A stretch of DNA of 64,000 bases from Prasinococcaceae sp. CCMP 1430 (Eukaryota; Prasinodermophyta; Palmophyllophyceae; Prasinococcales; Prasinococcaceae), in NCBI GenBank assembly GCA_013416795.1, contig RQSC01000028.1:586043-650042 (forward strand). Direction: 5' to 3'. The position numbers and the translations under genes were made by a program. This document shows, one piece after another, positions 35,327-61,200 of the stretch (the first letter of the stretch is position 1; the number at the start of each line of letters is the position of its first letter). Below the pieces are notes generated by a model, which worked only from the letters and a program-made list of their open reading frames with translations, did not search any database and had not been told where the DNA came from.

Positions 35327-35769
35327 NNNNNNNNNNNNNNNNNNNNNNNNNNNNNNNNNNNNNNNNNNNNNNNNNNNNNNNNNNNNNNNNNNNNNNNNNN
35401 NNNNNNNNNNNNNNNNNNNNNNNNNNNNNNNNNNNNNNNNNNNNNNNNNNNNNNNNNNNNNNNNNNNNNNNNNNNNNNNNNNNNNNNNNNNNNNNNNNNN
35501 NNNNNNNNNNNNNNNNNNNNNNNNNNNNNNNNNNNNNNNNNNNNNNNNNNNNNNNNNNNNNNNNNNNNNNNNNNNNNNNNNNNNNNNNNNNNNNNNNNNN
35601 NNNNNNNNNNNNNNNNNNNNNNNNNNNNNNNNNNNNNNNNNNNNNNNNNNNNNNNNNNNNNNNNNNNNNNNNNNNNNNNNNNNNNNNNNNNNNNNNNNNN
35701 NNNNNNNNNNNNNNNNNNNNNNNNNNNNNNNNNNNNNNNNNNNNNNNNNNNNNNNNNNNNNNNNNNNNN
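35327..35769. other. Assembly gap 1 (443 N)
   Basis: A run of N interrupts the 5' end of the RME-8 gene and possibly the promoter of the PIH1-like gene. True length is unknown. Confidence 1.
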
Positions 35770-50160: not shown

Positions 50161-50646
50161 NNNNNNNNNNNNNNNNNNNNNNNNNNNNNNNNNNNNNNNN
50201 NNNNNNNNNNNNNNNNNNNNNNNNNNNNNNNNNNNNNNNNNNNNNNNNNNNNNNNNNNNNNNNNNNNNNNNNNNNNNNNNNNNNNNNNNNNNNNNNNNNN
50301 NNNNNNNNNNNNNNNNNNNNNNNNNNNNNNNNNNNNNNNNNNNNNNNNNNNNNNNNNNNNNNNNNNNNNNNNNNNNNNNNNNNNNNNNNNNNNNNNNNNN
50401 NNNNNNNNNNNNNNNNNNNNNNNNNNNNNNNNNNNNNNNNNNNNNNNNNNNNNNNNNNNNNNNNNNNNNNNNNNNNNNNNNNNNNNNNNNNNNNNNNNNN
50501 NNNNNNNNNNNNNNNNNNNNNNNNNNNNNNNNNNNNNNNNNNNNNNNNNNNNNNNNNNNNNNNNNNNNNNNNNNNNNNNNNNNNNNNNNNNNNNNNNNNN
50601 NNNNNNNNNNNNNNNNNNNNNNNNNNNNNNNNNNNNNNNNNNNNNN
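50161..50646. other. Assembly gap 2 (486 N)
   Basis: A run of N lies between the PPR-SMR gene and the SHMT exon. Both genes may continue into it. Confidence 1.
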
Positions 50647-53140: not shown

Positions 53141-53549
53141 GCTAGAGCAGTGGCGGCGAGAGCGCGCCAAGTGTAGGATAGCAGCGTCATCGCACGCGTC
53201 GCGCACCCGCAAGTGCTCATGTTTGTCTCCCGGCAACGAGTGAACACGCGCCGCCGTTACGACCACCAAGGATGTTCACATTGCGGTCGCCTCTTGCACG
53301 CGGTAGGCCTATTCGCGGTCGTGTGTGTGCGCGCGTTCGTGTGCCCATGTGCGTTTGCATGGGAGAGCGTGGGTGTGGGTTGGTGTGCACGCGTGCGTGC
53401 GGACGTGTGCACGCACGCGCGCGCGCGCGCGTGGCCAAACGCGTGAAGAACCGCGGCGCGAATGCATCAGCGCTCTCTGTTTCCGGCGTGCGAGCATCTG
53501 CGCGCGCGCCCAGGCTCGCGCGCGACGCGCGCGAGCGCGCCACGCGCAC

Positions 53550-55124
53550 CTTCTTGGCCAAGCCGTAAGCGAGCTCGTAGACAACCTCTTTGGCTTCCTC
53601 CATGTCCATGGCGCCGTCGTCCACCATGCCCGCCGCCCAGCCAGACACCGCGCGGCGCCACAGCGCATGGCGCGCGGGGATGCTTGGGAACGCCCGCGTG
53701 TCATCGTTGAAGCCCGCGAGGCTGTACACGCCCGCGCTCTCGGTCACTCGGTCTAAGTAGCGGCGCATGCCGTTGCGCGAGTCGTGGAACCACCACGGAG
53801 GGCCCAGCTTGAGCGCGGGATACGCCCCCGCGAGCGGCGCCAGCTCGCGCGCGTAGGCGTCCTCATCGAGCGTAAAGATGATGATCGTCATGTTCGGATG
53901 CGAGCCGAACTCGGCGAGCAGCGGCCGCAGCGCGCGCACGAACTCCTGCGCGCGTGGCACGTCGCCGCCCGAGTCGGGGCCGAACGTGTCTCGCAGCGCC
54001 GCGTCGTGGTCGCGATAGACGCCGCAGTGCAGCTGCATGACGAGGCCATCCTGGGCGCTCATGCGCGCCATCTCGAAGAGCATATGGCCCTCGAAGGCGG
54101 CCGCGCCCTCCGGCGCCACCCTCCCCTCCAGCGCCTGCGCGAACGTCATGCGTGCCGCGAGCGTGCTGAGCGGCGCGATGGGTGTTGCGCCCAGGTCGTT
54201 CACGCCGTGGTCTGTGGCCAGCGCACCGGCGTCGACGAATGCGCGCCGCCGCTGCCTGAGCGCCACAAGGAAGCTGTCGTAGTCAGAAACCTCCACGCCG
54301 CTCACTGCGTTGAGCTGCTGCAGCAGCCCCAGGAAGCCCGGAGCGCCCACTTTGAAGAGCGCGTCTGGGCGCAGCGTGGGCACCACGCGCGCGCTGACAC
54401 CCGGGGCGCGCGCGATGGCCGCATGCGCGGCGAGGTCGCTCGTGGCCGCGTCGGTGGTGGATAGGAGTTCCACGTTGAACGACGCGAGCAGCGACCGCGG
54501 CGCGGCCGCCGGCGCGGCCAGCGCGTCGACGAGAAAGTCGTACGACGCGTCGGCGTTGTGCGCGCCCAGCGGCCAGTCTGCCCAGCCGAAGACGCTCTCG
54601 AGGCTATCTCGCAGCCACAGCGCCGTGGGCGTGCCGCGCAGCACGTGCGCGTGCGTGCAGAACGTACGCCAAGCCGAGCGGTCGTCCGCGACGGCCAGTT
54701 TCGTGCCTTCGCGCGCGCGCGGCCCGCGCGGCTCCACGCCGAGCGCCTGGGCCGACACGCGCGCCTGCGAGCGCATCAGGCGCAGCAGGTAGTGGTCGGG
54801 CTTCACGAAGAGCTCGGTGGGCGTCCTCCACCTGAACATCTCATCGGCCAGGACGGCCGGATCGACGTGCCCGTGCGGGCAGACGAGCGGTAGCGCTTCC
54901 ACGGACGCGTAGAGCTCGGCCGCAAGCGCCAGCCGCGCGGAGCCGCCGGCGCCCCCCAGGTAGCGCAGCTCCCGTCGCGAGCTGGCCGGCGCCGGCGCTG
55001 GCGCCGTCTCTGGCGCGGCGTCCGCCTCGCCGCAGAGCGCCGCTGCCGCTGGAGTTTCTTGAACCTCGAGCGGCACGCGCGCGCTTCCTTCGGGTCGGCG
55101 CGCACCCGCAGCCCATGCCGCGCG
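53550..55124 (-). CDS. uxaC: Uronate isomerase (glucuronate isomerase type)
   Basis: The protein isomerises glucuronate or galacturonate to a ketohexuronate. PLVCPHGHVDPAVLADEMFR gives the metal-binding HxH near the start; EMFRWRTPTELFVKPDHYLL and WRTFCTHAHVLRGTPTALWL follow. Further on are DALFKVGAPGFLGLLQQLNA, MQLHCGVYRDHDAALRDTFG, MTIIIFTLDEDAYARELAPL and KLGPPWWFHDSRNGMRRYLD, all characteristic. The C-terminus ends GLAKK at a GTGCGC donor (53549), so a short last exon is expected; I could not place it. The N-terminus has an Arg/Ala-rich leader, and the true start (possibly near 55327 in another exon) is unresolved. In bacteria this enzyme belongs to hexuronate catabolism; no partner enzymes occur nearby. 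Confidence 0.85.
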
Positions 55125-55633
55125 TGCGCGCGCGCCGCGCGCACCGCGCGGCGCGCGACGGCGATCGGATCGGCCAGGAAGAGAAGGGGGAAGAGGGGGG
55201 GGGAGGAAGTCGTCCCCTCCGCCGCCACGCCGTGTGTGGCGCCCACCCCCACCTCCCACACCCACACCTCCCTCACACGCGCCTCCCCTGCAAGCTCCGT
55301 AACGGCCAGCAGCAGCACCCCACTCAATTAAAATGCTGCTCTGAACGAACCCCGGATTCGATCCGCGCTTGCCCCCCTCCACGCCGAGGCTCCTGCGAAG
55401 GCGCGAGCCAAAAACACCGGTAGTTTGATCCAGAAATCGCAGCGGGCGCGCACCGCTGCGGGCGTACACGCAGTGGCGTGAGCATATCATCGCCTAGATA
55501 TGAACCCTACATATAAACCCAAAACATGCGAGTGACCCCTAACTGCGCGGCCCGGGGCCGTTCCCCCGGTGGGCGCGCGCGCTGCGAGCGACCGCGGGCG
55601 AGGTGGGTGGGGGGTGGGAGAGCGGAGCGCGGA

Positions 55634-55774
55634 CGCGGGCGCGTGTTGTGTGCCTGTCTGTGCGCCCGCCGGCGCGAGCGCAGGCGTGCGCGGGCGCGGG
55701 CCACTCGTCCGCGCCCGCGCACGCCTGCGCTCGCGCCGGCGGGCGCACAGACAGGCACACAACGCGCGCCCGCG
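55634..55774. repeat. Large inverted repeat: 66-nt arms, 9-nt loop
   Basis: The left arm (about 55634-55699) and right arm (55709-55774) are reverse complements with one mismatch (a G-T pair at 55644/55764), separated by gccactcgt. Within the arms a 55-nt stretch is perfect. It ends 24 bp before the start of the TBC gene, so transcription from upstream would give a very stable hairpin in the 5' leader. Assembly-chimera origin is also possible. Confidence 0.9.
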
Positions 55775-55798
55775 CGCCCGCGCGAGAGCGCCGCCGCG

Positions 55799-58135
55799 AT
55801 GGCGGCCGACGATGCGGTCACGCGCGACCGGTACGGCTTCGTGGTGTCCCCGGCCCAAGTGGGGCAGTTCCGCGAGCACGCGCCGCTCTACCTGCGCGAG
55901 GAGGAGGAGCGCGGCCCGCGGTGGGACGCCTTCCTGGCGCGCGCCGCCGACGCGCTGCGCAAACAGGCAGCAGGCACGGCGGACGCGGGCGCGGCGGACG
56001 CCGGCGCCGCCGAGAGCGACATCGACGTTGTCGTGCGGGCCCTGGAGGACCCCGCCGCCTCGCTGGGCGGTGGGTGCGAAGGGGACGCCGCGTCCCCCTC
56101 CGCGCGCGCGGACCTCGAGAGCGAGCTGCGCGTGCTCGTGCGCGGCGGCATTCCAATGCACCTACGCGGCGCGCTGTGGGGTGCCTTCACCCGAGCGCGC
56201 GGGAGGGCCTTGCTCGCGCGTGGGGGCAGGGACAACGACGAGCACTCGGAGGGGCAGGCAGAGGGGCAAGCGCAGCGGTGTGCGGGCGGCAGGGACGCGC
56301 AACCGCAGGCGACGCCGACACGCAGCGTGGCAGCGCCTGCGGCCGGCGAATGCGCGGGCGCAAATGTGGCGGGCACGCCTGCGACCCCCACGGCGCAGCT
56401 CACGAGCGTCCTTGGGGCAAGCAGCCCCTTCGTGAGCCCCGCGACGCGCGCCAAGCGCGCCACCGCCGGACAGGTCGAGAAGGATGTGCGCCGGTCCTTG
56501 CCATGCCATCCGGTCACGGAGCACGAGGCTGGCGCCGAGGCGCTGCGCAGCGTGCTGCTGGCATACGCCGAGCACAACCCATCGACAGGCTACTGCCAGG
56601 GCATGAACTTCGTGGCGGCGCTGCTGCTGTTGTTCCTTGACGAGGCGGACGCGCTGGACGCGCTCGTGTGCCTGGTGGATGGCGTGCTCGAGGGCTATTT
56701 TACCGACGACCTCGAGGGAATGCAGTGCGACGCGGGCGTCGTGCGCGAGTTGCTGCACTCGCACTACGCTGCCGCGGCTGCACGGCTGGACGCACTGGGC
56801 GTCGACGTGGCGTGTGTTGTCCCCCAGTGGCTCATGTGTGCCTTCGTGAATTCGCTGCCCTGGGAGACGACGTTGCGCTTGTGGGACGTGCTGCTCTACG
56901 AGCAGGACCGCACAGTGCTCTTCCGGGCGAGCCTCGCACTTTTTGAACCGCATGCTCGCGCGCTCTCGCGCGCGCAATCCTCCGGCGACGCGCTCACCAC
57001 GCTCATGGGCATGGCTCCCGCGGCATTCGACGCCTCGGAGCTCGTAGCGCATGCCATGGCGCTGCGTCTTGATGGGGCGGCGCTCGTGATCCTGCGCGCA
57101 GAGGCGGCCGAGCGCGTGGCGGCGCAGATGGCTGCGCGCCACGAGATGGTGCGCGTCGACGAGCAGCACATTCGCATCGAGGCATCGGGCGACGCAAGTG
57201 AGCGTGAATGTGCGGGGGGCGATGGGGCAGGCGAGTCGCCCGGCGGCGGCGGTGAGGGCGCTGAAGCGCGCGCGGAGGGAAGCGGCCGCGTACGTGGAGG
57301 CAACGCGGGTGGGTGTGCGGACGGCGGCGAGCAAGTACCTGGTGGAGACGTGCTGGCGCTGAGCAGCGAGCTGCGGGCGGCGACGCTGCAGCTTGGCCAG
57401 CTGCGGGGAGAGATGTCCGACGCCCGCGTTGGCTCCGCGCGCGCTGAGCGACGCAGCCGCGCCTTGCGCGAAGAGCTTGACGCGCGCGCGGCGTCCGAGG
57501 CAGCGCTGCGCGCGGAGCTCGCGCGCAAGGATGAGGAGTGCGCACACGCAGCCGAGGAGCGCGCACACCTCGCCGCGCTTGTGGCGCTTCTGTCGGAGGA
57601 GTGCGCGGCACTCGCCGCGCGGAACGGTGAACTCTGCGCTGCTGCGGGCGCGCTGGGCGTCGACCCAGCTCTGCTTGGCCCGTGTGAGCTCCCCCGTTCG
57701 CCAGCACCCGCGGCTGCGCGTTCGCACACGCTCAACGCACGCGTGCGCGGCTTGGACTCAGCGCCTCCATCGCGTGGCGCTGAACGCGATGGCCGCGGCG
57801 CCGGCAGAGGTGGTGGCGGCGGCAGCTCTGGCGCGGACGCCTCGCCCGCAGAGAGCGTTCTTGAGGCGGCTCCACAGGTGCGCCTGTCCCTCTCGCTGAC
57901 GTCACACCAAGATGCCGGCGGGGCCAGCTGTGAAGGAGCCGGCGCGCCCGCTGGCGCGAGCGAGGATGGGCGAGCGAAACAACCCGCACACGCTGCGGAG
58001 CTGCACAAGCGCTCCTATTCGGAGGACCCCTCGTCGCTGCGCGTGGCGCGCGCGGGAGACGGCGGTGATGGCAGCGGGGAAGGCGAGGGCGGCGGCAGGA
58101 TCTCACGCGCGCTGCGAAACTTTTGGCGGCGCTGA
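55799..58135 (+). CDS. TBC-domain Rab GTPase-activating protein
   Basis: An intronless 779-codon gene starting MAADDAVTRDRYGFVVSPAQ. The TBC domain spans residues ~110-390: LVRGGIPMHLRGALWGAF, VEKDVRRSLPCHP (the IxxDxxR arginine finger), HNPSTGYCQGMNFVAALLLL (the YxQ glutamine finger), DLEGMQCDAGVVRELL, VVPQWLMCAFVNSLPWETTL and RLWDVLLYEQDRTVLFRASL. An insert of ~90 low-complexity residues lies between the first two elements. Both catalytic fingers are kept, so it should stimulate GTP hydrolysis by a Rab, controlling vesicle traffic. Residues ~520-650 are a coiled coil, then a Ser/Gly-rich tail ending RALRNFWRR. The frame stays open upstream through the inverted repeat. Confidence 0.92.
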   Translation: MAADDAVTRDRYGFVVSPAQVGQFREHAPLYLREEEERGPRWDAFLARAADALRKQAAGTADAGAADAGAAESDIDVVVRALEDPAASLGGGCEGDAASPSARADLESELRVLVRGGIPMHLRGALWGAFTRARGRALLARGGRDNDEHSEGQAEGQAQRCAGGRDAQPQATPTRSVAAPAAGECAGANVAGTPATPTAQLTSVLGASSPFVSPATRAKRATAGQVEKDVRRSLPCHPVTEHEAGAEALRSVLLAYAEHNPSTGYCQGMNFVAALLLLFLDEADALDALVCLVDGVLEGYFTDDLEGMQCDAGVVRELLHSHYAAAAARLDALGVDVACVVPQWLMCAFVNSLPWETTLRLWDVLLYEQDRTVLFRASLALFEPHARALSRAQSSGDALTTLMGMAPAAFDASELVAHAMALRLDGAALVILRAEAAERVAAQMAARHEMVRVDEQHIRIEASGDASERECAGGDGAGESPGGGGEGAEARAEGSGRVRGGNAGGCADGGEQVPGGDVLALSSELRAATLQLGQLRGEMSDARVGSARAERRSRALREELDARAASEAALRAELARKDEECAHAAEERAHLAALVALLSEECAALAARNGELCAAAGALGVDPALLGPCELPRSPAPAAARSHTLNARVRGLDSAPPSRGAERDGRGAGRGGGGGSSGADASPAESVLEAAPQVRLSLSLTSHQDAGGASCEGAGAPAGASEDGRAKQPAHAAELHKRSYSEDPSSLRVARAGDGGDGSGEGEGGGRISRALRNFWRR

Positions 58136-58211: not shown

Positions 58212-61200
58212 TCACGACAGGTCAAAGGAACCTTGTCCGTTGTGAATGGCGTACATCAGCCTCTCGCGCATGGCGGCCTTCGTGCTGTATGGCGGCATCT
58301 TGAGGTAGTTAGCGCACGTCATAACACTCGGCAGATCGCCCGTGAGTAGCATCTGCTTGCTGACGGCCGGCGAGGGCGAGTTGTTGGGCGTGTTTCCGGC
58401 CTCGCCAGAAACGTGTTTGCGCACGACGGTTAGGCGCGGCGAAAGGGCCGCAAGGCCACCTGGTGGCAGGCGAGGTGCGCCAGTCACGAAGCGCAGGAAT
58501 GCCCGCTGGTCGTCGGCGCCGAGCTCCGACAGGATCTCCACGAGGAAGCCGCAAGGGGCGCTGGCGGCCGTGTAGCCGTGGTCAAACTTGATGTGCTCCA
58601 CAAGCATGGCCTTCGCCCAGCGCTCAGTGCAGCCGCACACCAGTTCGTTGATCTCCTCAGCGCTGAACGGCGCGAGCGTGCGCATGTCGAAGACCTTGGC
58701 CATGCCCTCGCAGAAGGCGGCCACCTGCTGCTCGACGCCCGCGCCGACAGTCGCGTCCTTGACGGCGACCAGGTAGGACCTTAGTTCTGCGGGCCCAACG
58801 CCCGTGCCCTGCGCGACCCCGCCGCCGAGCTCCGCGTCTCGGTACCCCGGCACAGCCCATTCAATGCAGAGGTCTTCGATGGTAGCACCGTCAACTGCGA
58901 GTGCCTTGGCCTCGCTATGCCTTCCCTGCGACTGCAGAGCGTCGTATTCGTCTACATAGGCGCCCAGCTTCGCGAGCGTGGCCGCTAGCGCAGGGTCCAC
59001 ATCCGATACACGAACGTCCGCAGCACGCCCGCCATCGGTCGCGCGCGCGAGGGCCAGGTCCCAGAAGGCGGGCGACAGGTGCATGTCCATGAGCCGCCCG
59101 TCCTGCAGCGCCTTCCCGACCGACGAGCCCAGGAGCCTAAAATGCTTGAGTGCGCGCTCCCTGCGCGACGCCTTGGTTGCCAGAGGGCGCGGGAACAGGC
59201 CGCAATTCGCGCGCACCATCTCAGCTTCTGGTGCGCCCTTGCCCTGCTTGCTCGCAACGGCGCCATCCGTGTCCATGTCGTTCTGGGCGCTGGGCACATC
59301 CCCATCGTCGCGCCAGAGCTTGAGCTTCCTCTCCTGCAGTGAGTGGCCCAACAACGTGTAGAACTCCAGCGTCGGCCCAAGACCCGTGCCGACCTCTTGG
59401 AAGTACTCGATTTCAAGCGTTGCCGTCGAGCCCGCGCACATATCCATGACTTTAAATGCGCTGGCCATGATATCGCCACGCGAGAGTCGCACTTTCTGCC
59501 GCTGCAGCCGCGCCACGCGTGGTTCCCCACGCTGCGTGTGCCGCGAACCGCCCCCGTTGCCGCGCTCCGCCGTGCCGCTGTCGACGCCCTGCTGCTGCAG
59601 CCGTTGCAGAGCACGCGGCAGGCCGAAGGACGTGCCGTAAAAGAATTGCCTTCGCACCTCAAAGGTGAAGAGAAACGGGCACGCCTGCATCAGCTGTGCG
59701 CACCACTCTGGCAGACCAGCGCTGAGCACGAGCGCGTCCTGGAGCTGTCGGGAGAGTTTGCTGCTGAGCTTTGTGCTCGTGAAACGCGCCGCGAGATGCG
59801 CAGGGAAATCGCCCCCAAGGCCGCGAGCCGCCAGGGTCTCGTGCGCTTGCAGCCAAAGGCGTCGCAACACAAGCAGGGCATCGTAGCCTGGCGTGCACTT
59901 CGCCAGCGAGCACGGGAGTGCGTCCGATGAGTGGGCGTGGCTGCCGGTGCAGCCGACGGCGGTCACACCTTTCGATTCGGGGCGCTCGGCATCCCCAGCA
60001 CCCGCGTCCGAATCGGTGGCGCGCCTGTATGAGATACTATGAACCGTGTCCCAGAGCCGCCGCTGCTGCGAGGGCTGACCTCCGGTTTCGGCATTCCTCT
60101 CAGCGAGCGCGCCGTTGAGGGCCGAAATGATCGTCATGCCCGTTGGCACGTCCCTTCCATCGATGGAGAAGACGAAATGCTGCTCACTGGCCTTGCCCTT
60201 GCCGTCTTTCGACCCGCCGGCCGCAGCCGCTGCGTATGATGCCGCCGCACGCTTGCGCTCGCCCGCAGAGCCGCCCGCGTCGGCTTCGCCGCCACCGGTG
60301 GGCGACGGCGGCCTCTCGACGCCGGGATCGGGCGCACCAGCTGATTCTCCGCCGTCGCTCTCCCTTCCGCCATCCGTGCCCGGGTCGATGTCCTTCACAG
60401 GCTCCGCCATGGGAACTTCCTCCTCGTGTTCATAGTCATCCAAGTCATGCGCGTAGTCGTCCTCGTCGATGTCGTCCATCGAGTCGTCCTCGTCGAGAGG
60501 TGGAGGATCCTCATCTGCGTCCATGGCGTCGGCTTCCTCCGCCGGCGGGGGGCTGCCGCCCACGTCGCCGCGCAGTGCGCGGGTGAGGGCGGAGGCACGC
60601 GCGCCCTTGGCGCCATCATGAGGAGCGGCAGCGTCCGGAGCATCCTCCAAAGCCTTGTCCTTGCCTTTCGAAGGCGCGTCTGTATCCACCTTCGCTGCTG
60701 CCTTGGTCATCGAGCGTGTCATGCGGCCAGCGGGCTCATCGGCGCGCTTGCCCTTACCCTTGGCTGCGTCTGCCTCCGCGCGCCCCGGCGCGGGAGCAGG
60801 CACGTCGGGGCGTTGTACACGAGGCCACAGGAAGTCCTCCACGGACTGGAGCGTCTCAAGTGGCTCGATGAGCACGACGTTGCCAGAGTAGTCGCGCAGA
60901 GAGCGCTCGCCGGATGCGCGGCACAGCCGTAGCTTGATCGGATGCGCCAGTGCGGAGAGCGATCCGGCGATTCCGCTGCTCGCGCCCGGCGGCGGCGTGC
61001 TCTGCACAACCGGAAGGCGCTCGAGCACGTTGTACGCTTGGCAGAGTTTGCCGACGAGCTCGTGCAGCCCGCTCGATACGCCTGAGCCGGGAGGCATAGC
61101 CACGGACACAAAATCACGAAGGCGGCGCGATGCCCAGTCGCCCTTTTCGGAGTTGCTCAGAGTATCGGGAAGGCCGCCGAAGGTGAAGTGACGCTTGAGG

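What the first reader, a model, noticed from the sequence alone, without database searches (positions are those of the whole stretch)
55634..55774. 66-nt-arm hairpin just upstream of the TBC gene
A near-perfect inverted repeat of this length with a 9-nt loop is rare in a compact genome. It lies 24 bp before the ATG. It could be a regulatory RNA hairpin, a small-RNA source, a MITE-like remnant, or a fold-back assembly artefact.
Basis: seen in the sequence. Interest (0 to 1): 0.6.

Follow-up and report, generated by a model that had tools for sequence, protein, structure and literature searches.

The report
Single-copy long hairpin before TBC gene
Just before a membrane-traffic (TBC/RabGAP) gene of a GC-rich alga, one stretch of 66 bases is followed almost at once by its own mirror copy; it is a unique feature of the assembly, most likely a one-off DNA-copying slip, and nothing yet shows that the cell uses it.

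Summary
Arms 55634-55699 and 55709-55774 pair at 65 of 66 positions around a 9-nt loop. The hairpin ends 24 bp before the TBC ATG at 55799. Chance is excluded: the best hairpin in ten 64-kb local-composition simulations scored 19, against 62 here. The only mismatch is G.U on the + strand RNA. Neither arm occurs elsewhere in the 24.5-Mb genome, and no target-site duplication stands out, so a MITE family is not supported. In 251 kb sampled elsewhere, the only other non-simple long inverted repeat is a 211-nt-arm, gene-like pair around an N. Codon periodicity begins at the TBC ATG, so the hairpin is non-coding although the frame is open. A simple fold-back artefact is disfavoured: both outer flanks are unique, the arms differ at one base, and no N lies within 5 kb; reads were not available. 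A small-RNA source is weakly disfavoured: no RNase III or Dicer was detected, and the one Argonaute seen has D->N at a catalytic Asp, but the Dicer-specific search had no positive control. Best reading: a young inverted duplication made in place by replication template switching, with consequences in cis if transcribed and no shown function.

The parts
55634..55699 (+). left arm of the inverted repeat (66 nt)
55700..55708 (.). 9-nt loop GCCACTCGT
55709..55774 (-). right arm, reverse complement of the left arm except T55644/G55764
55627..55633 (+). imperfect outward continuation of the left arm (pairs 4 of 7 with 55775-55781)
55775..55781 (-). imperfect outward continuation of the right arm
55799..58135 (+). 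intact TBC (RabGAP) gene, open in one frame over 778 aa, RabGAP-TBC domain; start supported by onset of codon periodicity
   Evidence: Pfam PF00566 E 2.6e-43; GC by codon position; translation
53217..55490 (-). divergent neighbour frame with a glucuronate isomerase (UxaC) domain; the true start is probably well inside this open frame
   Evidence: PF02614 E 5.6e-66; ORF
55480..55530 (.). less GC-rich stretch between the divergent genes with a TATAAA-like motif (about 55510-55520); possible promoter, by inference only
   Evidence: sequence

Best explanation
A real, single-copy inverted duplication of about 66 bp in the non-coding leader or promoter of the TBC gene. Most likely origin: during replication the nascent strand switched template (onto itself or the opposite strand), copied the arm backwards and switched back, in one event; the GC-rich quasi-palindromic edges would supply the microhomology. 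Shown: geometry, uniqueness, non-coding position, arms almost identical. Inferred: the template-switch origin, youth, and the effect. Likely effect, if any, is in cis: if the TBC transcript starts upstream, the stem (the fold of 55600-55830 is -216.6 kcal/mol) would be expected to block scanning, so expression would need a start site within the last ~24 nt before the ATG, removal by splicing, or strong repression would follow; otherwise it is a tolerated DNA palindrome with no function.
For: Exact geometry, short loop, far beyond chance. Both arms unique in 24.5 Mb, so copied locally rather than inserted from a family. No stand-out target-site duplication. Arms differ at 1 of 66, and similarity decays at the edges into generic GC-rich sequence. 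Non-coding: GC at codon position 2 is 0.83-0.87 upstream and falls to 0.50 from the ATG. Template switching is documented to create long perfect stems in single events, including new microRNA loci (PMC8794818).
Against: No relative or ancestral sequence was available, so the origin cannot be shown directly. No reads or RNA data, so neither reality in the cell nor transcription is proven. Rarity in the genome rests on sampling about 1% of it.
Confidence: 0.58

Rival explanations
1. Fold-back artefact of library or assembly.
For: The assembly is gapped: single-N and long-N gaps occur, and one other sampled long inverted repeat (L031:8954-9400) sits directly at a single N. An 82% GC stem is hard to sequence.
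Against: A fold-back read yields X-A-loop-A'-X', with complementarity running on outwards; here both outer junctions lead into different unique sequence, the right one straight into an intact gene. The arms differ at T55644/G55764. Nearest N is 5 kb away.
Confidence: 0.15
2. A selected regulatory 5'-UTR hairpin that controls TBC translation in cis.
For: Position 24 nt before the ATG, extreme stability, and the only mismatch is a G.U pair on the gene's own strand.
Against: A stem this stable would be expected to abolish scanning rather than tune it; no conservation data; no comparable hairpin in the sampled sequence; a single mismatch says little about selection.
Confidence: 0.12
3. Small-RNA (miRNA/siRNA) precursor embedded in a gene leader, as in Chlamydomonas.
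For: In Chlamydomonas most miRNAs come from introns and UTRs of coding RNAs, and some 5' UTRs carry siRNA precursors (PMC4817775). One Argonaute-like gene is present here.
Against: That route needs a Dicer-like RNase III; none was found by four models, though exon-split genes can be missed and Dicer_dimer had no positive control. The Argonaute has Asn in place of the second catalytic Asp, judged from the alignment with Ago2.
Confidence: 0.08
4. MITE or fold-back transposon remnant.
For: Terminal inverted repeats with almost no interior.
Against: No other copy of the arm in the genome even with 3 mismatches; only 4-nt CGCG/GCGC flank repeats, expected in such GC-rich DNA.
Confidence: 0.04

Closest known systems
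Template-switch mutations that create hairpins (PMC8794818)
   Same: Long near-perfect stem, short loop, single copy, reverse complement of adjacent unique sequence
   Different: Ancestral state not available here; 66-nt arms are longer than the largest pattern (up to 59 bp) mentioned in that paper's discussion of rRNA data
Chlamydomonas UTR/intron miRNA and siRNA precursors (PMC4817775)
   Same: Stem-loop apparently in the leader of a protein-coding gene of an alga
   Different: No Dicer or RNase III detected in this genome; no small-RNA data; no bulges in the stem
MITEs / fold-back elements
   Same: Terminal inverted repeats
   Different: No family, no convincing target-site duplication

Membership tests
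Template-switch inverted duplication | reverse-complement copy of directly adjacent sequence | tested here: met
   65/66 over 66 nt, 9-nt spacer
Template-switch inverted duplication | absent from the ancestral sequence (one-step gain in a tree) | not testable with these tools
   no related eukaryotic genome in the collections
Template-switch inverted duplication | no second source locus for the arm | tested here: met
   only these two matches in the genome
MITE | several copies in the genome | tested here: not met
MITE | target-site duplication | tested here: not met
   only 4-nt CG-type repeats next to arm ends
miRNA/siRNA precursor | Dicer-type RNase III in the organism | tested here: inconclusive
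   none detected; the search may miss exon-split genes and Dicer_dimer lacked a positive control
miRNA/siRNA precursor | phased small RNAs from the stem | not testable with these tools
   no RNA data
Known structured RNA (Rfam) | match to a curated family | tested here: not met
   no match at gathering threshold in the window
Fold-back assembly artefact | inverted copy continues into the reverse complement of the flank | tested here: not met
   complementarity stops at 73 nt with unique flanks on both sides

The most novel reading that the evidence does not exclude
In an alga with an Argonaute but no detectable Dicer, the hairpin is transcribed and acts in cis as an extreme structural switch on the TBC mRNA, or is processed by a Dicer-independent route.
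Probability: 0.05. Interest if true: 0.55.

Novelty: new member of a known kind. Interest (0 to 1): 0.25.

Why it matters
If real, it is a clean single-copy example of a long near-perfect hairpin arising next to a gene start in a compact GC-rich genome, and so a place to test how a cell tolerates such a palindrome and whether de novo hairpins alter a neighbouring gene. By itself it is most likely an ordinary mutational product.

Tried and rejected
Rfam scan of the window: nothing. Search for other copies of the arm in the genome: only the hairpin itself; in viral and prokaryotic collections: none. Coding reading (ORF 55526-58135 is open through the hairpin): rejected because codon-position GC shows no coding signature before the ATG. 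Target-site duplication scan: only 4-nt CG repeats. Attempt to profile typical leaders and promoters from automatically picked start codons: several picks in the window were clearly internal ATGs, result discarded. Species identity: size, GC and the reported lack of Dicer resemble Prasinoderma coloniale (PMC7455551: 25.3 Mb, 69.8% GC, Dicer placed as a later gain), but that paper reports a PacBio-based assembly in 22 chromosomes whereas this one has 145 gapped contigs, so identity is not claimed.

Full report
Observation. The sequence holds an inverted repeat exactly as described: 55634-55699 and 55709-55774, 65 of 66 positions complementary, loop GCCACTCGT. Gapless extension reaches 73 nt at 95%, with mismatches only at the outer edge and at T55644/G55764. 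The latter is a G.U pair in RNA of the + strand. The hairpin is 82% GC. It is not a chance product of composition: the next best inverted repeat with a loop up to 200 nt in 64 kb scores 16, a CG run or a G/T-rich match, and ten simulated 64-kb sequences of local composition reach at most 19 against 62. The predicted RNA fold of 55600-55830 is -216.6 kcal/mol, 16.6 standard deviations below shuffles; the DNA strand folds likewise, and so does the - strand RNA.

Surroundings. Downstream lies an intact open gene with a RabGAP-TBC domain; its ATG is at 55799, so 24 bp separate it from the hairpin. The same frame is open up to 55526, through the hairpin, but in this GC-rich DNA other frames are open too, and GC at the second codon position is 0.83-0.87 before the ATG and 0.50 from it on. 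The hairpin is therefore most likely non-coding. The neighbour on the other strand encodes a glucuronate isomerase domain, so the hairpin lies in the region between two divergent genes. A less GC-rich stretch with a TATAAA-like motif at about 55480-55530 may be the promoter; if so the hairpin is in the 5' UTR. This is inference from sequence.

Uniqueness. In the 24.5-Mb genome the 201-bp region matches only itself and its own reverse complement, and a 25-nt core finds no further match with up to 3 mismatches. No exact match of a 24-nt core exists in the viral or prokaryotic collections. In 251 kb of other sequence from this genome no comparable non-coding hairpin was found; with zero in 251 kb the 95% upper limit is about one per 84 kb, so dozens to a few hundred in the genome cannot be excluded. 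The single other long inverted repeat, L031:8954-9400 (211-nt arms), surrounds a single N, is 94% identical with gaps in BLAST and reads as an open, gene-like sequence; it is a different thing.

Artefact or real. A fold-back read or assembly turn gives a sequence that continues as the reverse complement of its upstream flank. Here the complementarity ends on both sides in unrelated unique sequence, and the right side leads at once into an intact gene. Making this by error would need two separate false junctions. The arms also differ at one base and no N lies within 5 kb. Reads are not available, so this is an argument, not a proof.

Origin. A family of mobile elements is not supported (single copy, no convincing target-site duplication). 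The simplest origin is replication template switching, which has been reported to create long perfect stems, including new microRNA loci, in one event (PMC8794818). Which arm is original cannot be told without a relative.

Function. A small-RNA role has a precedent in Chlamydomonas, where Dicer-like 3 cuts stem-loops in UTRs and introns (PMC4817775). Here no RNase III domain was found with three RNase III models that ring in bacterial controls and no Dicer dimerisation domain (no positive control). One Argonaute-like gene was found; aligned with Ago2, the first catalytic Asp and the His are kept and the second Asp is Asn. No PAZ match was found either, again without a positive control. The small-RNA reading is thus weakened, not excluded. 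A cis effect on translation follows only if the hairpin is in the mRNA; a stem of this strength would be expected, from general knowledge of cap-dependent scanning, to stop the ribosome, so either transcription starts in the last 24 nt, or the segment is removed, or the gene is strongly repressed. None of this is shown.

Verdict. A tidy, probably real, probably ordinary mutational product, with modest interest as a test case.

Noticed in passing
L005 (G000:C31:119748-120602, - strand): The only Argonaute/Piwi gene detected in this algal genome has Asn where Ago2 has its second catalytic Asp (RDG to RNG), while the first Asp and the His are kept; no Dicer or RNase III was detected.
   Followed up: partly
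L031:8954-9400 (G000:C79, about 58954-59400): Inverted repeat with 211-nt arms (206/211 matched without gaps; 94% by BLAST) around a single N; coding-like arms, either a convergent duplicate pair or an assembly join.
   Followed up: partly
window 8782, 16657, 35327-35769, 50161-50646: Assembly gaps or withheld stretches: two single N and two runs of N; the GC dips at 35 and 50 kb in the composition profile coincide with the N runs.
   Followed up: yes
window 53217-55490: A glucuronate isomerase (UxaC) domain gene in a photosynthetic eukaryote, a family best known from bacteria; origin not examined.
   Followed up: no
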